NCBI GenBank assembly: GCA_000310025.1
Contig: FN649758.1
Span: 3,372,114 to 3,393,346 of the forward strand
Direction of reading: 5' to 3'
Length of the DNA stretch: 21,233 nt
Source: Ectocarpus siliculosus
Lineage: Eukaryota; Sar; Phaeophyceae; Ectocarpales; Ectocarpaceae
The translations under genes and the position numbers were made by a program. The notes below the pieces were generated by a model. The model saw nothing but the letters and a program-made list of their open reading frames with translations. It did not search any database and was not told the origin of the DNA. This document shows positions 7,254 to 16,000 of this stretch, in pieces. How positions within the stretch are numbered: position 1 is the first letter of the stretch; each line of letters starts with the position of its first letter.

Positions 7254-10200
7254 ATGGTGCAAGCGGATCGTAAGATATTGGCTCTCCTGTATCACAGCAC
7301 CGGCGGACCCGCATGGAGCAGAAGTCACAACTGGAATACGAAGGCCGATATCTCATCTTGGCGAGGCGTGAAAGTCAACTCCAAGGGCCGCGTGGTCCAG
7401 CTCGACCTGAGCAACAACAAACTTGAAGGTGCTCTCAACCCCCTCACCAGGACAAAGCGGCGGCAGGAGTGTGTTAAGATCGCCCTTTGATTCATCTGTA
7501 ACTTCTTCTTTATGTACTTCGTTTCCTCGTAAACATTCATCCGATGTCGCTGATCGCAACCATGTTTGCAACAGAGCCGCGGGTGATGTGTGGCGATTGT
7601 CAGCGGCGCACAGGGTTGGGGACTTACAGATGTTCCCTGGGTTCTACCTGGTCCCACCAACGCGTCCGCGGTTCCAACGTTCTTGATTTGCCCCCCCTTT
7701 TTCGCCGCTTGAACTTCAGGAGTTATACCCAAGGAACTAGGCAACCTACGAGCGCTGACGTCGCTGGATCTACGTTCCAACGAGTTGAAAGGTGAAGTTT
7801 GCGTTGCCATATTGTTGGGTACAAAAGGGCAGAACGACAGTCGTTTCTGGGGCATCCTTCCCACCAAAGCGAGGCCAGGTCCGATGTCTTTTGTGTGCTC
7901 ATAGGAGTTTGGCGGGACAAGCTCGAGGGGCCGGCGGAGTTACAGTAGAGGTCCCTGTTTAGTGCCAGTATGTGTCCAGACAATTTACCGGTACTATTTG
8001 GGACCGCCTCTATTCTTGCATCGAGAATGGCATGGAAATTCAGTGTGCGCCCGCTGAAAACACGAAAACACCGACACTATGCTGGGCACCGGCACTAAAC
8101 AGGGGCCTCTAATGTATGGTTTGTAATGTCCGCCTGTTGTATTGTTGTTCCAACCGAGCTGGAGCTCGTTCAACCTGCTGAGAGCTCCCGGCACCTCAAG
8201 CATGAGATCAGCAACGGCAGCATGGCGTATATAAAATATACCAGGGATGAAATAACGAGCAACCGAATATGCCTCTTATGTTTCATCTACAAGTCGTAAG
8301 GGGGGACTCAACCTGTTTATCCTCCGGATTTTCACTAAATAGCGCGATGCTTCGACTGGCTTGTTTGCAGAACACATCCCGAAACAGCTGGGGAGTCTAA
8401 CAGCCTTGGAACACCTCGACCTCAGCAGGAACCAGCTAGGAGGTGGGTACAGAAAATCGAACTGGCAAACTCATTATTCCACTTCTTCTGCAGAAAGACG
8501 TACATCCTTGTCAATGGGTACACTTCGCTCAAGCCGTATATACCCGGGGCGAAATGTGATGCGGGACAGCACTGTGTATACTGAAACACCACGCTTGGGT
8601 CTATTCCGTATCGCACGGTGCGTTGGGTTCGGGAGGGGGTGGACCAAGAGGCTGAGAGGAGGGGGTGGGAACACTTTTTCCGAGCCGGGACTTCAAGTTG
8701 ATATCATGGCGACGAAAACAGTAATAGCGAAATGGCTGCAAACGTGCGCTCGCACTCCTGTGTGCTCTCAGAGCGCTTCATCGGTAGGTGACGCGCACCC
8801 CCGGTCATGTTCAGCTGGCTCGTTCGAGATCTAGTAGAGCCCATCATCCGTATGAAATGCGGCGGTGTGTATACAATACGAGGTTTCGTCTGTCTGTCAC
8901 ACGCACCAGGCCAGGCGGCGGTAGGTACTACAGTGCATGGTGTCGAGCAGCATTTTGGAACGAAGGAACATGCAACCATTCTACCCGAGTGACCGCGGGG
9001 TTGTTGTTTGCAGAAGCAGTGGCCTGCGTGGTTATTCTCATATTTGGCCATCACGACAACCCAGTTCGTATTCGCCATCAGGGCGTGACACCAAGCAAAT
9101 TCGTTGGAGAATGAAGGAAATACACATACACAAATGAAGCGAGATGAAACGCCGCCCGGTTCAACGTGGAACACAGCAAACCATCGGAAAGAGGGGGAGA
9201 TGAAGGTTTGGCAGTCACCGCCATCATCCAACAGAAGCAAATAGATGGCCAAACATGTAGTGCTCAGGCCGCACTCTCCAAGCCATTATCCAGAAGCAAG
9301 CCAACCAGGTCTGGTCCACCCTCGGACACATCTCGCGACCAGACAACTCTGCAAACGAGTGCAGAAATTCTCTTCGGGAAGGCCGTAGGCAAAGGAGTTC
9401 TATCATTGCTGGCGGAACCCTGGCCTTCCCCGGAAGGACCAATGCGCCAGAACTGCATCGAATGTCCCTCGGTCGCCGTTACGACCGAGCCAAACATAAG
9501 GCAGGAACATATTGTGGTTGCGGCGCACTTGGTCGTGTGCTAACCCTCGGAGACGCTTCCACACACTCACCTGCATGCCAAAACATTCCTCAACAATCGG
9601 ATCGCACACGTTGTTGGGAAAACCATCTGTAAGTGTGACATGAAGGTGGCTGTCCGAAGACTCCTCCAAGTGGTTCGTACTAGACATTGGTCAAAGTAAA
9701 CGGCCTAATCAAAGATGGAGTTGGTCATGCCTGTATCGTACCATGTATTCGCTGGATTCTAGAACACGTGGTCCCGCCAATGCGTGAGTGAGTAGGCCGT
9801 TTTCTCGCTGTCGCAGCATCTTTGGTCGGTTCCATGATCGTGTCACTGTCTATGCAGGATCCATCCCGACGACGCTAGGCGCTCTGAGCAAGCTGAAGAC
9901 TGTTCAGCTCCACGCCAACAAGTTAACCGGTGAGGGAGTCCAGGCGGGCATGGAATTTCTGGTTTCATTGTAAGTGCGCTCCGCGCACTTTCGCATTAAT
10001 CGATCTTCTTCTCTAGCCGGACTGGAAGGTTGCAGTCACCTCACGTGGTGTGTGGTTTGGTTGCTCTCTTAAATAAGATAAATGAGGCAGAGAAGGCTCC
10101 AAGCTCGGGATGAAGCCTGCGGCAAGTCGATTTTTTTTTTTGCGCCATTTGTTTTGGCTTCGGACAGCATGCTCCCCTATGCGTGTGACAAACAAATGTC

Positions 10201-12358
10201 CTCAAAGGCAGATAGCCCAAACCAGGAAGACTCTCTCGTTGTTTTACTCGTTGACGTTGAGCCGATTGCCTAAGATTGCTCGGTGTACTAGCGGTGAAAA
10301 AAGGTTTGGAGTTGAAGAATCACTCTAAGAGCACATGCTGACGGCGATGTTCTCGAAGCCTACAGATTACATGACGCCGAGGTTAACGTGGTTTCGATAC
10401 TACTGCTGTGCTGCAAAAAGCAGGAAACATCCCCAAGAGTCTGGGAGCTTTGAGGAAGCTGCAAGAGCTTTCTCTCTACAACAACGAACTTTCTGGTGAG
10501 AAATGATGCAAATGGGAACGAGCATTGTTCTTCACCACCACCCGGCCTACGGACTTCTTCGCAGGGCCGATAGTCTACCACGAGCTTCTCACACGATTTT
10601 CTCCTTTGTTGTTGCCACTGCGCTGCTTTGTGCAGGGCCCATTCCCAAGGAGTTGGGAGCCCTCACCGAGCTGCAGAAGCTAGATCTATATCGCAATAAT
10701 CTGTCAGGTCAGTGGTCTTACTGCAATTACGATGATATTTCGCTCTTCGCTTGCCGAGATTGGCCTCTTCTAGACCGCATGTCCCACCAACACGTTGCCG
10801 AGACCAGTGTTCTAGAATCTAGAACGAACAGCGCTTGTTCCCTGGAGGAAGGACAAAAGACCGATAACTCAGACTTACCTGAAGCTGATTCTTGAACAGC
10901 GGAAGTATGTACCTCCAGTGTTTTCCGAGCTCCCAGCTCATTGCGAATGTGTCCACACTAGCCGCGCACGTTGGATACACGGCGAAAGCGAAAACGTTTT
11001 GCGATCGGTGTTGCTGTTCGTGTACAACATGCGATGGCCTGCTCTTCCACGCATGGGGAGGACTAATGCGCGGGTGGACAGATGTGGTACCAGCCGCTGG
11101 AAATCGAGCTGATTTTCTGTTCCTTGTTGGGTCCGTTTGTGCCCCATCATTGCAGGTCCCATCCCGCCGGAGTTTGGATATATCACAGCGTTGGTGTCCA
11201 TGATCCTCTTCCAGAACAATCTCACCGGTATGTAAAAATGTTCACATGCGATGTGATGTCGCAGGGAAAAAGCAGCACTTGTGCCTCCCACGCGGTGGAA
11301 TGGGTATCAACAAGTAGGTCCCGTATGCATAGACAGGACACGGTCTACGGGCCTCGACTTGAGCGTATGTTCCAACAGAGTCCATCGGAACAACTCTGCA
11401 AGAAGTGTGACAAACAGAACAGCGATTTGTTACAGTAGTGCATGTTGCCTGAAAGCTGGGTTAGTAACCAGTCAAACGCCTCCAGCTTGCTGAGAGCTCC
11501 CAGCGCTTCGGGGATGTATCCTGCACGGGCAACACAGCACATGAAGGAACATCGATTTTCGAACGTATACTCAGTAGGGACAGGTCTTTCTAGTACAAAA
11601 CGGCAAGAAAGCCGATGGGTCATTTCCTCGCTCAAACCGTGTTCTTCTCGTTTGCTGCAGGCGGTATCCCGAAACAGCTGGGAAACATCACAGGGCTGCA
11701 CACGTTAGAAATCCACAGGAACCAGCTGAGCGGTGAGTTGTTGCGCACTGGCGTGCCATATCACCTCTCCGGAACAACGTTGGAATCAGTGTGAACGATG
11801 CGTATAGTTGGAGCACGGAAGCCAGCGGAGCCATTTTACATGCCGGACGAAACGGACCGAAGCTCCACGCTGCCCACCAGTAAGCCGGTTGGTGTCTGGC
11901 GAGAACGCTCCCAGCTTGCGGAGAACTCCCAGCAGTGCAAAAAGAGAAGCCACCTCTGGAACATGAGGGACTTAGGCCCGACCTATGTGCGCAAAAGCAG
12001 AACCACCTGATCTAGAGTCCCACCACGTGTGTTACGGGATTTCATTTTCAGGGAACATCCCCTCGGAGCTAGGAGCCCTGAGAAACCTGGAGTCGCTCTG
12101 GCTTTGCGACAACCAGCTTTCTGGTAAGGACTGTGTCAACACTGCTGCCGTTGTTCCAATATGTGTCTCCACCAACCTGTTACACAACCGATGTTTCTCC
12201 ACAACCGCCTTGGCTTGACGCGTGTTCCCGAAAGTACCAAACATCACACCTTATTTTCCTTTTGCCGGTCTCCCGACACTTTTCAGGCCCTGTACCGGCG
12301 TCGCTGGGACAGCTCACCAATTTGCAACGAATCGAACTGGATAACAACCGCATTGTCG
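7254..12358 (+). CDS. LRR protein: N-terminal cap exon plus nine single-LRR exons
   Basis: Exon 1 (7254-7428) starts at ATG 7254 and encodes a 58-residue plant-type LRR N-cap (MVQADRKILALLYHSTGG, NWNTKADISSWRGVKVN, VVQLDLSNNKLE). Nine exons of exactly 72 nt follow: 7720-7791, 8371-8442, 9858-9929, 10424-10495, 10636-10707, 11156-11227, 11661-11732, 12052-12123 and 12287-12358. Each has an AG acceptor and GT donor, each is phase 1 at both ends (the repeat Gly codon is split G|GN), and each encodes one 24-residue repeat of form GxIPxxLGxLxxLxxLxLxxNxLx. All join without a frame break, giving 274 codons. There is no signal peptide in exon 1, so an intracellular protein is likely. Brown algal LRR families with this one-repeat-per-exon layout are known and have been proposed as immune receptors. 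The downstream partner is probably 13027-18009. Introns contain antisense LRR exon copies and a MITE. Confidence 0.9.
7943..8114. mobile_element. pogo-like MITE in LRR intron 2, copy 2
   Basis: A 172-bp element with terminal inverted repeats: left CAGTAGAGGTCCCTGTTTAG, right (read inwards on the minus strand) CATTAGAGGCCCCTGTTTAG. TA dinucleotides flank both ends (7941-7942 and 8115-8116), as expected of a TA target duplication. CAGT-type termini and TA targets are hallmarks of Tc1/mariner-pogo elements. It has no coding capacity. It lies between LRR exon 2 and the antisense LRR relic at 8134-8205. Confidence 0.75.
8134..8205 (-). pseudogene. Antisense LRR exon relic in intron 2
   Basis: On the minus strand the phase-1 frame reads LEVPGALSRLNELQLGWNNN, clearly an LRR (GALSRLxELQLGxN). 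The ACAACAG end is followed by gc rather than gt. The N-terminal IPxxL part is altered and the acceptor AG is not where expected. A 72-nt window is open, but small compensating indels shift the repeat register. It is read as a decayed LRR exon inserted or inverted relative to the host gene. Confidence 0.7.
9274..9348 (-). pseudogene. Possible antisense LRR relic in intron 3 (weak)
   Basis: On the minus strand a good acceptor (cgtttgcag) precedes 75 nt whose second half reads LVGLLLDNGLES in one frame, similar to the LxxLxLxxNxLxG half of an LRR. The first half is not recognisable and the donor is absent. It is listed because each other intron longer than 300 bp in the array carries a clearer antisense copy. 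Confidence 0.25.
9403..9687 (-). CDS. Unidentified 94-codon open frame inside LRR intron 3
   Basis: Minus-strand frame starting MSSTNHLEESSDSHLHV and containing TDGFPNNVCDPIVEECFGMQ, then a GT donor-like site (CAG|gtgagt at about 9570) and further open sequence to a stop. Composition is more protein-like than most chance frames here. It is not similar to anything I recognise. It may be a gene fragment carried into the intron or chance. Nothing nearby supports an independent gene. Confidence 0.2.
   Translation of the reverse strand: MSSTNHLEESSDSHLHVTLTDGFPNNVCDPIVEECFGMQVSVWKRLRGLAHDQVRRNHNMFLPYVWLGRNGDRGTFDAVLAHWSFRGRPGFRQQ
10045..10116 (-). pseudogene. Antisense LRR exon relic in intron 4, exactly 72 nt
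   Basis: On the minus strand a CAG acceptor (cttgccgcag) is followed by exactly 72 nt without a stop, then a gtgagg donor. Phase 1 is kept at both ends. The product reads FIPSLEPSLPHLSYLREQ then PNHTP. It keeps the IP, several Leu positions and the Asn of the LRR consensus, but the final G before the donor is C and several core residues are changed. Size and splice borders identify it as a decayed LRR exon in reverse orientation. Confidence 0.65.
10879..10953 (-). pseudogene. Antisense LRR exon relic in intron 6
   Basis: Minus strand: 75 nt open in phase 1, starting HIRNELGARKTLE and ending with a consensus donor (CTTCAG|gtaagt). In the shifted frame the end reads LFKNQL, the usual LxxNxL end of an LRR, so small indels have moved the register mid-exon. 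The acceptor position has gtgtg in place of a CAG, so splicing into it looks lost. Confidence 0.7.
11449..11520 (-). pseudogene. Near-intact antisense LRR exon in intron 7
   Basis: Minus strand: acceptor cccgtgcag, then exactly 72 nt, phase 1 at both ends and fully open. It encodes YIPEALGALSKLEAFDWLL followed by TQLS plus the split Gly. The GxIPxxLGALSKLE half matches the family perfectly. The second half has lost the LxLxxN pattern (DWLLTQ). The donor is gcaaca, a GC site, not the usual GT. Apart from that donor it could serve as an LRR exon of an opposite-strand gene. Confidence 0.8.
11878..11955 (-). pseudogene. Antisense LRR exon relic in intron 8
   Basis: Minus strand: acceptor gttccag, 78 open nt, donor CTTACTG|gtgggc, phase 1 at both ends. 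It reads LLGVLRKLGAFSPD then TNRLT plus the split Gly, so the LGxLxxL and NxLTG landmarks are kept. The first third, which should contain GxIPxx, is degraded and two codons longer than standard. Confidence 0.7.
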
Positions 12359-12792
12359 GTGAGTACCTCAATGGAATCGGTGTGCATGACCTTGAACGAA
12401 TGTCATGCACGCATGGGCCTTGGGAGGGGCAAATCTCCTACAGTGTTTTTCAAAAAAAAATCCCGCTCTCACGCTGGGTAACGTGTTGTGATTTGTGGTT
12501 AGCACTACCAGACCGTTTGACTACGCCGAATTGTTTTCGGCCCTGGAGTAGAATCAAAAACACTTCAGAGCTCACGGGCGTTTCAGAAAGTCATTGGACA
12601 AAACACCGAGAGATGCTTAGTACATGAACGGAAGGAGGAAAGCTCGTCCTACAAATCTAAAACACGAGGCGGACCTGGAAGGTTATTCTGTCAATAGATT
12701 AACCACTATCAACAGAACACCGGTTCATTGCGGTCAGCCACGCCAACGTGAACAAAGACGCGTAATAGAAGAACCTCACCTCGTGTGACACC

Positions 12793-12868
12793 CTGGCAAG
12801 TCGGTGCTTGTCGAACAGATGCATTCCGACTTCCAATGGGTTCGGACTATGTTTCGTTCGGAATTTGC
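12793..12868 (-). pseudogene. Antisense LRR exon relic in intron 10
   Basis: Minus strand: about 76 nt after a polypyrimidine stretch and a damaged acceptor (cgcatg where cgcag is expected). One frame gives KIPNE at the start, and another gives LEVGMHLFDKHRLAR at the end, matching the two halves of an LRR across a frameshift. It has no clean donor. It is the most decayed of the clear antisense copies. Confidence 0.55.
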
Positions 12869-13026: not shown

Positions 13027-16000
13027 GAGGGCCGATGAGTGGCGAGAGCCTTGGTTTGTGGATGGCAAGGTTACGGAGGCAGGAGACTGCCCGTCATGGG
13101 AAGAAAGAGACAACCATGGATACCATCAGCTCCCCAATACCAGGTGGGAACCTCCAGGGGAAACACGGGGCTGCGACTGAACGCAATTCCTCGTTGCGCA
13201 GTCCCATGGCAAGGTTACGGGGGCAGGAGAGTGCCCGTCATGGGAAGAAAGAGACAACCGTCGAAACCATCAGCCCCCCAACACAAGGCGGAAACCTCTG
13301 GGGGGCACACGGCGCTGCGGATGAACGCCATTCCTCGGTACGCAATTCCTCATTAGACGGGGGAGATGCGGAGAACTTGTTTCGGGCGCAGGTCGCTTCC
13401 TTTGCGGAGTTGGATGAGATCACCCGAGACAATCACAAAACTCTGGAAGAAGTTAAACGGCTCCTCGAATCAACCGCCACCGGTAGCGGCCCTACCGGCG
13501 CTGATCTCACCCGTACCGACAAGCTACAGGAGCTCGACAGGCTGGTAGCAATGGCCAAGGATCTCGGCGACGTGGCGGTGAGTGCTGCAGTTCAGTCATA
13601 CGTTTTACTTGGCTACAACGGCATGGGGGTGAACTGACACGTGTTTGCCCAATGCCGCGTGGGGTGTCGTGCGCCGTACACGCACTTGTGATCGTCTCTG
13701 CGTCCGATCCTCCCCAATGCTTGCCGATCACCCCAGTTTGAGTCCTGTACAAAGATTGCCTCGACGTGACCACGAGACGATACGCGATGTTGTCTAACTG
13801 CGCAGTCCAAACACATGGAGGACAAGGACATGCATCGAAAGGAGCTTGCCTTACCCCCGGGTTCGAAAGCGTATTACACCACCATCAGAACGGGTGTATG
13901 CAATGCATACCTCGCTGGCAGCGTCGTCGGCAGTCGCTTGGTTCGTACAAGCAAGACCGGGGGTATGAGCATGGTGAGTGCTGACCTAACGGTTGTGTGA
14001 TCGTTTAGCGGTCTGTTCCGTGTCATTCGCTGTGCAGTGTTCGTTCGCAGGTGCGCGTCTTTTGTCCAGACCCGAGATGCTTTGTTTGCCGTCTTGCAGG
14101 CGGGGGAATTCCTGAATCTGCTGTCTGGTGCGCTTCCCTTTGTCGGCGGGCTAGCTGGCTTCGCAGCCGAAGCTTTGAAGGCTGGGGACAACAACATCCA
14201 AACTCGGCGGGTGATCAAGGTGAGCGTGCTTTCATGCACGAGGGGGCCGTGAATATTGACGCATTTTGTACGCCCGCGTCGCCCTAGATGCCTGCCCAGT
14301 CTTGGGTAACGTTCACCAGCCACGGCTCACCCTTGATGCTTACCCTTGATGCTTGACAGATGACCGATCTGGCACCTGATGCGGTGGAGTGTTGTTCGGT
14401 GGCAAAGCTACTGGGCTTACGCCTCACCGACTACCTCTCAGACGAAACCATCACCACGTCCTACGACGGGCGGGGAGGCCCCGTGCACAGTGCAGCAGGC
14501 TTTGGCGAGGGGGCAGGTATAGGTGAAGTTTGAAAACGGAATTTGCGTTCTCAACCATGTGACGTCCACGGCTGAACAACGCCATGGCCTGGAACTGGTT
14601 TTGCGTGGTTTTGATGGCCGCAATTGTCGACCGGTGCCGAAACAAGATATTTGTGGCGTGATTCGTTTTCGTGGGAATACGTGCACGCAGAACCTGTGGT
14701 ATGTAACGCACCTCTCACAGGTTTGGTCTTACAGACCGGTCGACTACACAATCTCTGCGATTTCGTTGTTTGAAAAATATTACCGTGACCGTGATGTGTT
14801 CTTGGACCAAGCACGTGTGTAGCATATATGGGGCAGGAGGAGGCAAGTTGACCCCTTCGTTTTTTTGATAGGCCAGGGTTGACTCGTTGTTGATATTCTG
14901 TATGAGCGCCGAATGTTTGGCTCGTAGGCCGCGCAAGGCGTCTCGAACCGACTGGAGCGTTGGCATGAGTTCATCGCCTAGGCCGAAGACGGTCGTGATG
15001 TTTCAAGGTACCAAGTATCTCCCACAACGTTGAGTTGTCGCGCGGGCCGTCTACGATTCTTTGTTTCGTGTTCACAGGCGCGTGCGAATGGAGTCAGAGC
15101 AATGGCGGCTTGCCAGATTGTGCAAGCGACGAAGACTTCATGGAGTGGTTCGCTGAAGAGGCGGCGAGCTGCGTGCCAAACAACACAGGGAAGAGCACCC
15201 CTGAAGAAAAGGTATTTACTTGAAGAACAGTTTTGGCGCGCTTCTTGTACGGCACGCTCCCTAGCGGGAATATTTCCAAGGAGCTTCGGCGATCGATGTT
15301 CGCACCACCTTTCGTCCGCGCCCCCGTTCTCGGCAGACTGGGAGGCGGCTGGGGAAGCGACACATCCGCATGATACTGGCGGCGGTGGAGCGGGGTTGTC
15401 TCCAAGGCACACACGCCATCGAAGAAAAGGTGTGACACCGTTATGTTCAGAGAGCCAGCTCGTCTTGCATCTTGGTAGTACGTTGGCTGAACTGCTCCGT
15501 TTTTCGAAGGCTCCGGGGACTATCACGGCAGGCGATGTCCTCACAAACTTCGCGCTGTGGCCATACATGAGTGCAGATGGGTTATTTTCCAACGATCAAC
15601 CAACAGGAAGAATTCACCTCATCACACGTTTCGGCCAACACATGATATGTTTACACTGCGATTTAGGTTGAACAGCTGCTGAAGGTGGTTGTTCCCGAGG
15701 CCGGCGCGAAGCCTGTTTCGAACTCAAATGCTCAAGAGAGATCGTTCGAGCAGCATCCTGCTGCGCCGGCGCCATCCCATGACGGAGGCTTGGACCTGCA
15801 TGCAGAGTTTGCCGCCATGCAAGCAAAATTGGAAGCATTGGAGATCGAGAATGGGAAGCTCACGAGGAAGGTGAGCGGAGTCAGTTTTCTCCACACAACC
15901 TCAACGCATTTGCACTTTTGATGTGACGTGTCCTAAGCAGTGTTGACCTGTGAGCTGCCAAAACCTGCCGCCCGAACGATGCGTGCAGCAAACTCAAATC

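What the first reader, a model, noticed from the sequence alone, without database searches (positions are those of the whole stretch)
7720..12868. Sense and antisense LRR exon cassettes alternate along one gene
Seen directly: nine 72-nt sense LRR exons run from 7720 to 12358, and introns 2, 4, 6, 7, 8 and 10 each hold an LRR-exon copy on the opposite strand (8134-8205, 10045-10116, 10879-10953, 11449-11520, 11878-11955, 12793-12868), with a weak seventh in intron 3. Only the short introns 5 and 9 (140 and 163 bp) and intron 1 lack one. So 5 kb of DNA holds two interleaved series of LRR cassettes of opposite polarity, with the same 72-nt size and phase-1 borders. Brown algal LRR genes are known for exon shuffling. 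An interdigitated antisense series is not something I know to be described. It could be debris of repeated inversions, an opposite-strand gene sharing the introns, or a reserve of variants for gene conversion, comparable in logic to the donor cassettes of lamprey VLR loci. The last two are inference.
Basis: partly seen in the sequence, partly recalled or inferred. Interest (0 to 1): 0.92.

Follow-up and report, generated by a model that had tools for sequence, protein, structure and literature searches.

The report
Two-way shuffled LRR exon cassettes
The reversed copies of a recognition-domain exon in this gene are decayed remains of an arrangement seen at many sites in the same genome, where single exon cassettes lie in both orientations and appear to have been cut and rejoined at a short palindromic DNA site, which could be how this organism (probably a brown alga) reshuffles candidate immune receptors.

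Summary
All nine sense 72-nt LRR exons are real. Four of six claimed antisense copies are real and decayed; two are unsupported. The larger result lies outside the window. Twelve other LRR loci of this genome hold dense arrays, one cassette per ~240 bp, 114 sense and 103 antisense in random strand order, 81 of 103 antisense intact. Near-identical stretches (>=95%) hold exactly one cassette in 126 of 132 cases, 77 same-way, 55 inverted. They tend to end at a palindromic joint, half-sites around a 2-bp palindromic centre (mostly GC, some TA), found in 141 of 164 spacers with a held-out profile. Two exact joint patterns match 14 and 60 times in 189 Mb, all within 250 bp of an LRR copy. Antisense cassettes bear the selection signature of expressed LRRs. 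Fetched TPR exon arrays show no inversion. Best reading: cassettes are cut and rejoined at these sites, like a shufflon with orientation-blind sites; the window is a frozen array whose reversed cassettes decayed. Enzyme, timing and somatic use are not shown.

The parts
7254..7428 (+). Exon 1 of the LRR gene: N-terminal cap and the first half-repeat
   Evidence: 74 matches to this exon type in the genome, this one included
7720..7791 (+). sense LRR exon 1 of 9 (72 nt)
   Evidence: 21.2 bits, null maximum 10.2; 0 of 200 shuffles
8371..8442 (+). sense LRR exon 2 of 9
9858..9929 (+). sense LRR exon 3 of 9
10424..10495 (+). sense LRR exon 4 of 9
10636..10707 (+). sense LRR exon 5 of 9
   Evidence: 14.8 bits; 0 of 200 shuffles
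11156..11227 (+). sense LRR exon 6 of 9
11448..11522 (-). best preserved antisense LRR cassette exon: open 72-nt frame, acceptor AG kept, donor GC instead of GT
   Evidence: 35.7 bits; 0 of 200 shuffles; frame and splice letters
11661..11732 (+). sense LRR exon 7 of 9
   Evidence: 23.0 bits; 0 of 200 shuffles
12052..12123 (+). sense LRR exon 8 of 9
12287..12358 (+). sense LRR exon 9 of 9
10776..10809 (.). possible decayed cassette joint in intron 6
   Evidence: joint score 13.9, reached by 1 of 60 shuffles; one of ten introns scanned, weak alone
7646..7679 (.). possible decayed cassette joint in intron 1 with core ACGCGT
   Evidence: joint score 12.0, reached by 2 of 60 shuffles; one of ten introns scanned, weak alone

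Best explanation
The window gene is a frozen member of a genome-wide system of single-exon LRR cassettes. A cassette is about 240 bp: half-site, end of an intron, one 72-nt LRR exon with its own splice sites, start of an intron, half-site. SHOWN BY SEQUENCE: in dense arrays, cassettes lie in either direction in random order; most joints are a dyad of two half-sites (reading outward from the centre: R-T-N-G-G-C-G-x-G-A) around a short centre, mostly the palindromes GC or TA; near-identical cassettes recur in different arrays and orientations with different neighbours; most antisense cassettes keep intact splice sites and LRR structural residues. INFERRED: an enzyme cuts at the centre, leaving a 2-nt self-complementary overhang. 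Any end can then join any other end, so a cassette is excised, inverted or moved to another array with random orientation. Because the exons have the same length and phase, any sense combination should splice into an in-frame LRR domain, and reversed cassettes are skipped as intron until flipped back. Arrays that stop recombining, like the window, keep selected sense exons while stranded antisense cassettes decay. FURTHER INFERENCE: the site anatomy resembles that of serine recombinases; whether shuffling is germline or somatic is unknown.
For: Antisense copies in the window above chance. 14 of 16 fetched stretches carry full-length copies on both strands. In the dense set, 114 sense and 103 antisense copies in random order, 103/114 and 81/103 intact; in the other 15 loci 101/111 sense but 15/51 antisense intact. 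Exchange unit: 126 of 132 alignments >=95% and >=150 bp hold one cassette, 1 holds two, 5 hold none; 51% of 476 ends of the one-cassette alignments lie within 5 bp of a joint, against 3% for random interior points. Joint: 143 of 164 spacers exceed the 95% shuffle level with a profile trained partly on the same spacers; 141 of 164 with a profile that leaves the tested locus out, including 40 of 53 spacers that lack the core AYGCRT. Centres: GC 92, TA 12, the four mixed trinucleotides GCA, TAC, TGC, GTA together 20, others 19. Joint types donor-acceptor 78, donor-donor 34, acceptor-acceptor 31, close to random joining. Specificity: 14 of 14 and 60 of 60 exact pattern hits, 65 distinct joints, lie within 250 bp of an LRR copy; reversed controls 0. 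Selection: nonsynonymous differences at the 10 structural codons 10/79 between antisense pairs and 7/91 between sense pairs, against 40% expected without selection; 13/82 and 7/98 without the splice filter. Contrast: alignments among four TPR stretches are 107 of 107 same-way, up to 1.8 kb. A palindromic GC centre makes a serine integrase join in both orientations (passages of PMC10661055).
Against: No recombinase found: the only Resolvase-family match is a partial one in an IS607-like element, and one of seven tyrosine recombinase matches passes its cut-off, with a partial domain (not followed); both searches read exon by exon and can miss genes. Near-identical cassettes in several arrays mean copy gain, which pure cut-and-rejoin does not give. 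Antisense cassettes are somewhat less intact (81/103 against 103/114, Fisher p 0.02) and carry more stops (7 against 2). 21 to 23 of 164 spacers have no clear joint, and 49% of alignment ends are more than 5 bp from a joint. Joints were not clearly found at most array boundaries examined, and they are only weak in the window. Of ten loci sampled by N-terminal-exon rank, three have no antisense hit and two only hits of 10 bits or less. One assembly, no reads, no RNA.
Confidence: 0.66

Rival explanations
1. Each cassette is a small non-autonomous mobile element carrying an exon; a transposase inserts it next to other cassettes, using the joint as its target, and arrays grow by repeated insertion in either direction.
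For: Near-identical copies of one cassette in several arrays mean copy gain. Ends share a short terminal consensus. The 2-bp centre could be a target-site duplication. A few cassettes lie away from any LRR head exon that I know of (L152 beside an N run, L155). Doubled cores at some joints could be excision footprints.
Against: All 74 exact joint-pattern hits (65 distinct joints) lie at LRR copies, none elsewhere in 189 Mb. Donor-side and acceptor-side ends mostly belong to different sequence families, unlike terminal inverted repeats. The two joints of a cassette need not share centre type: TA/TA 2, GC/TA or TA/GC 8, GC/GC 57 of 119, though GC is too common for a strong test.
Confidence: 0.2
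2. Passive duplication: replication slippage, template switching or ectopic gene conversion scatters LRR exons in both directions, and nothing specific acts.
For: Repeat arrays are prone to such events. Antisense copies in the window and other sparse loci decay as neutral debris would.
Against: Alignment ends concentrate at one palindromic joint, single cassettes move alone (126 of 132), and TPR exon arrays of the same genome show longer same-way duplications and no inversion among the four stretches compared.
Confidence: 0.07
3. The antisense cassettes are exons of a gene on the other strand.
For: Intact splice sites and frames in most antisense cassettes of dense arrays.
Against: No head exon on the opposite strand of the dense arrays; random strand order; antisense decay in the sparse loci.
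Confidence: 0.02
4. The two-strand order is an assembly artefact of a repetitive region.
For: N runs lie in or beside some arrays (L005, L011, L152, L157).
Against: Decayed antisense copies in sparse arrays such as the window have lost splice sites or frame and so need time in place. The pattern recurs at many loci on different contigs with one joint rule.
Confidence: 0.03
5. Reversed cassettes act in RNA: they pair with sense cassettes in the pre-mRNA and steer exon skipping.
For: Sense and antisense cassettes of one transcript should be partly complementary (inference; no folding was run); alternative splicing of these LRR exons is published (PMC11378527, section 11).
Against: Does not explain the joints, single-cassette exchange or the selection pattern at protein-structural codons.
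Confidence: 0.02

Closest known systems
Exon-shuffled LRR (ROCO) and NB-TPR genes of brown algae (Zambounis 2012, not held; Teng 2024, PMC11378527)
   Same: 72-nt exons, letters 3-71 coding one 23-residue LRR; ROC domain downstream in one fetched locus; most variable residues of sense cassettes 14, 16, 18, 19, which are the published positively selected sites. Somatic recombination was proposed in 2012 (as cited).
   Different: Teng 2024 has no occurrence of 'antisense', 'inverted' or 'opposite' and says that site-specific recombinases and somatic recombinant loci have not been reported. Two-way cassettes, the joint, the single-cassette unit and the TPR contrast are additions here, unless Zambounis 2012 has them.
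Bacterial shufflons and invertible cassette systems (recalled)
   Same: Cassettes in both orientations separated by short sites; inversion changes which part is expressed.
   Different: Here each cassette is a spliced exon, sites are near-symmetric so orientation is free, cassettes recur in different loci, and no recombinase is known.
V(D)J recombination (recalled)
   Same: Gene segments of a recognition domain joined at dedicated sites; joints with small irregularities.
   Different: No 12/23-like pairing rule: donor-acceptor 78, donor-donor 34, acceptor-acceptor 31. Many repeats stay in the array.
Serine recombinase sites such as Bxb1 att with a palindromic GC centre
   Same: Inverted half-sites around a 2-bp centre; a palindromic GC centre gives both orientations (PMC10661055 passages; PMC4111918 passages).
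   Different: No enzyme gene shown; half-sites here vary in several families.
Lamprey VLR assembly (recalled)
   Same: LRR modules drawn from a pool into one receptor gene.
   Different: VLR copies donor cassettes through short homologies; here whole cassettes join at a shared palindromic site and lie inside the gene in both directions.

Membership tests
Brown algal exon-shuffled LRR genes | one LRR per 72-nt exon, all in one phase | tested here: met
   9 of 9 sense exons
Brown algal exon-shuffled LRR genes | ROC GTPase domain downstream of the LRRs (ROCO) | tested here: inconclusive
   Met in L013 (Roc, E 1.5e-16). No Roc match for the two window stretches nor for the pieces tested from L001, L003, L005, L007 and L016 (1 of 8 proteins)
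Brown algal exon-shuffled LRR genes | the organism is a brown alga | not tested
Site-specific cassette recombination (shufflon-like) | cassettes bounded by one conserved site | tested here: met
   141 of 164 spacers with a held-out profile; alignment ends within 5 bp of joints 51% against 3%
Site-specific cassette recombination (shufflon-like) | cassettes found in both orientations with intact coding | tested here: met
   114 sense, 103 antisense, 81 of 103 antisense intact in the dense set
Site-specific cassette recombination (shufflon-like) | recombination observed between cells, clones or generations | not testable with these tools
   one assembly, no reads
Serine recombinase system | dyad half-sites with a 2-bp centre | tested here: met
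   106 of 143 joints have a 2-nt centre, GC 92 and TA 12; 103 of 141 in the held-out test
Serine recombinase system | a serine recombinase gene in the genome | tested here: inconclusive
   only one match, partial, in an IS607-like element; the search can miss genes split by introns
V(D)J recombination | pairing rule between two signal types | tested here: not met
   joint types near random
V(D)J recombination | RAG1/RAG2 homologues | not tested
   no genome search was left
DNA transposon | copies dispersed outside one gene family | tested here: not met
   74 of 74 exact joint hits within 250 bp of an LRR copy; 56 of 57 for a looser pattern
DNA transposon | matching target-site duplication at both ends | tested here: inconclusive
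   centres of the two joints differ in a number of cassettes, but GC is too common to be decisive
Lamprey VLR-type gene conversion | tract ends inside shared homology | tested here: not met
   same cassette beside different neighbours, break mostly at the joint

The most novel reading that the evidence does not exclude
A programmed, possibly somatic, DNA shuffling system of a multicellular stramenopile: LRR exon cassettes are cut at palindromic 2-bp-centred sites by a still unknown, perhaps serine-recombinase-like, enzyme and rejoined in any order, locus and orientation. Orientation acts as the on/off switch of each repeat, so one array encodes a very large set of receptors. This would be a separate invention of rearranging receptor genes.
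Probability: 0.3. Interest if true: 0.98.

Novelty: new variant of a known kind. Interest (0 to 1): 0.92.

Why it matters
Adaptive immunity in brown algae by somatic recombination was proposed in 2012 (as cited in PMC11378527), but that 2024 paper says that no recombinant locus and no site-specific recombinase has been reported there. The joint described here is a concrete signal: it tells where to look in long reads, what PCR product an inverted cassette gives, and what DNA an enzyme should cut. It also explains why reversed LRR exons sit in introns and why they are intact in some genes and decayed in others. If recombination is somatic, it would be another independent origin of rearranging receptor genes; if germline, an unusual device for evolving receptors quickly.

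Tried and rejected
Opposite-strand gene: no opposite head exon listed in the dense arrays. Passive duplication: disfavoured as main cause by joints, unit size and the TPR contrast. Serine and tyrosine recombinase families: no convincing intact candidate; the tyrosine match over its cut-off was not followed. TCTAGA as a second joint: common in spacers (114), but only 2% of alignment ends lie within 10 bp of it. Joints in the window introns are weak. Literature: ten searches showed no title or abstract start that describes reversed LRR cassettes or this joint; four of these listings showed only part of the papers found. Zambounis 2012 is not held, so I cannot exclude that it mentions reversed exons.

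Sampling limits: the first 16 stretches were chosen because one search showed LRR clusters, many on both strands, so they are not a random sample. The ten were taken by rank of the N-terminal exon (first ten not yet fetched). The dense set was defined after the scan: 13 stretches, of which L009 and L010 are two pieces of one locus, so 12 loci. L156 (gene direction unknown) and L002 were left out of sense/antisense counts. Copies under 12 bits, under 40 profile columns, starting at profile column 38 or later (N-terminal half-repeats) or running off a stretch were dropped before the counts. The joint profile was trained partly on the spacers that it tested; one search repeats the test with the tested locus left out. 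The selection test used only full-length dense-set cassettes with both splice sites (184); one search repeats it with 202. The output labels the structural codons '9 of 23'; the mask holds 10. The pairs of like ends are not independent. The strand counts rest on lists capped at the 150 best of 335 (LRR) and 669 (TPR) candidates, and some TPR clusters are repeats inside one long frame rather than exon arrays.
Full report
WHAT WAS CHECKED. The window is part of a 189-Mb assembly, contig C33. Nine sense LRR exons of 72 nt, all with AG and GT borders, follow an N-terminal exon and read as one open frame. Besides these nine, a profile of them finds five matches above the inclusion threshold in the whole 21-kb window: four copies on the minus strand, between 8145 and 11934, and a 14.9-bit match to the half-repeat inside exon 1. 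The four score 35.7, 23.0, 21.2 and 14.8 bits, against a maximum of 10.2 in 2.1 Mb of null sequence, and none of 200 shuffles of each intron reaches them. The copies claimed at 10045-10116 and 12793-12868, and the weak one in intron 3, get no support. The four real ones are decayed: none keeps acceptor, donor and frame together.

WHERE IT LEADS. A 25-residue LRR query against the same genome showed other LRR loci with exons on both strands. Sixteen stretches were fetched and scanned with a profile rebuilt from 227 hits; 14 of 16 carry full-length copies on both strands, and in most of them the minus copies score like the plus copies. Thirteen stretches (12 loci) were then grouped as dense, with a median distance of 241 bp from copy to copy: 114 sense and 103 antisense copies, 103 and 81 intact (acceptor, donor, frame), in random strand order (117 runs, expected 115.2 +- 6.5). 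The remaining 15 loci, the window among them, hold 111 sense copies, 101 intact, and 51 antisense copies, 15 intact. A sample of ten genes taken by rank of the N-terminal exon has counted antisense copies in 5 of 10, with 5 of 21 such copies intact. Of the other five, four lie on contig C30; three have no antisense hit and two (L019, L023) only hits of 10 bits or less. The first loci were partly chosen because they looked two-stranded, so the share of dense arrays among all LRR genes is not known.

THE UNIT AND THE JOINT. Alignments between dense arrays of at least 95% identity and 150 bp number 132; 126 hold exactly one cassette, one holds two, five hold none; 77 run the same way relative to the gene and 55 inverted; 114 are between different loci. 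Three cassettes are 100% identical over 243-279 bp between different contigs. Ends of the one-cassette alignments lie within 5 bp of a joint in 51% of 476 ends, against 3% for random interior points. The joint was first seen as AYGCRT cores in spacers, 197 in 229 spacers against 42 +- 7 expected. A half-site profile without the centre, applied to 164 spacers of 11 dense stretches, finds a paired joint above the 95% shuffle level in 143. The centre is GC in 92 and TA in 12. In 20 it is one of GCA, TAC, TGC, GTA, which is what a GC end and a TA end give when three of four overhang letters are kept; 19 are other. That profile was trained partly on the same spacers. With the tested locus left out, 141 of 164 pass, among them 40 of the 53 spacers without an AYGCRT core, and the centres are again led by GC (92), TA (9), GCA (8) and TAC (6). 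Donor sides and acceptor sides of cassettes mostly carry different families of half-sites, and they are joined nearly at random: donor-acceptor 78, donor-donor 34, acceptor-acceptor 31. The letters next to the centre mostly go with the cassette end: the R letter agrees in 539 of 638 pairs of like ends (chance 55%), the N letter in 586 of 638 (chance 27%), the centre in 371 of 638.

SPECIFICITY. The 17-letter joint pattern has 14 matches in 189 Mb and the 21-letter one 60, with none for the reversed controls. The 74 matches are 65 distinct joints, and all lie within 250 bp of an LRR copy of 15 bits or more; places not seen before were fetched for this. A looser pattern with two mismatches gave 57 matches, control 2; 56 of 57 lie at LRR copies, and C26:4913204 does not. 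TPR exon arrays are the natural contrast. In the capped lists 1 of 114 clustered TPR exons is on the minority strand against 16 of 99 LRR exons. All 107 alignments of >=90% and >=100 bp among four TPR stretches run the same way, with lengths up to 1.8 kb. The core is about four times rarer there (0.54 against 2.34 per kb).

SELECTION ON REVERSED CASSETTES. Between nearest antisense pairs 10 of 79 nonsynonymous codon differences fall on the ten structural codons; between sense pairs 7 of 91; without selection 40% is expected (p 2e-7 and 7e-12). Without the splice filter the counts are 13 of 82 and 7 of 98. The most variable residues of sense cassettes are 14, 16, 18 and 19; in antisense ones 14, 16 and 19 lead and 18 ties with 13. 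Residues 14, 16, 18 and 19 are the sites published as positively selected (section 11 of PMC11378527). So reversed cassettes descend from, and may return to, the expressed state. A somewhat higher share at structural codons (10/79 against 7/91, not significant, p 0.31) and more stops (7 of 103 against 2 of 114) suggest that they spend part of their time unselected. This test cannot separate repeated flipping from constant replacement of dying reversed copies by young ones.

HOW IT MAY WORK. The simplest scheme is a cut at the 2-bp palindromic centre and rejoining of any two ends. This yields inversion, loss and transfer of single cassettes without regard to orientation. The same behaviour is on record for a serine integrase whose site is given a palindromic GC centre (passages of PMC10661055; general site anatomy in passages of PMC4111918). 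No such enzyme gene was found: the one Resolvase match is partial and lies in an IS607-like element. The gain of copies in different arrays needs an extra step, such as reinsertion of excised circles or unequal inheritance; this is the weak point of the scheme and the strong point of the mobile-element rival. In the window the same history has stopped: sense exons are kept by selection, reversed ones decay, joints are barely recognisable.

WHAT IS KNOWN. LRR exon shuffling in brown algal ROCO genes is published (Teng 2024: abstract and sections 11 and 15 read, other parts only searched for terms), with a proposal of somatic recombination by Zambounis 2012, which is not held and was seen only as cited. 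Teng 2024 states that neither somatic recombinant loci nor site-specific recombinases have been reported and prefers alternative splicing; its text has no 'antisense', 'inverted' or 'opposite'. In two other papers only passages found by search terms were seen. That the organism is a brown alga is inferred. Shufflon, V(D)J and VLR features are recalled unless a call is named.

Noticed in passing
window 7936-8118: A repeat of about 180 bp in intron 2 with inverted ends (AGAGGTCCCTGTTTAGTGCC and its complement with small changes), next to the first antisense copy; 37 of the 40 scored genome matches of the window query are this repeat (letters). Looks like a small inverted-repeat transposon.
   Followed up: no
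window 13361-13589: The region after the LRR part has two relatives, C15:4072122 and C16:2106208; no Pfam domain above cut-off in the frame tested there.
   Followed up: partly
L021-L024 (contig C30): A subfamily of LRR genes with sense exons and no antisense copies that pass the count (one 9-bit hit in L023): a natural control lineage.
   Followed up: partly
L159 (C16:5120587-5123775): IS607-like element with a partial serine recombinase frame and a TnpB/Fanzor-like frame (naming by eye).
   Followed up: no
spacers of L001-L016: The palindrome TCTAGA occurs 114 times in 38 kb of spacers without coinciding with alignment ends; unexplained.
   Followed up: partly
L152, L155: Cassettes away from any LRR head exon that I know of: one beside an N run, a small group beside a different stretch of sequence.
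   Followed up: partly
L010 740 and 1030: Doubled cores ACGCGTACGCGT at some joints, as a filled-in overhang or an emptied cassette would leave.
   Followed up: no
L027-L030: TPR exon arrays share long same-direction stretches of up to 1.8 kb, some in tandem, a different mode from the LRR arrays.
   Followed up: partly
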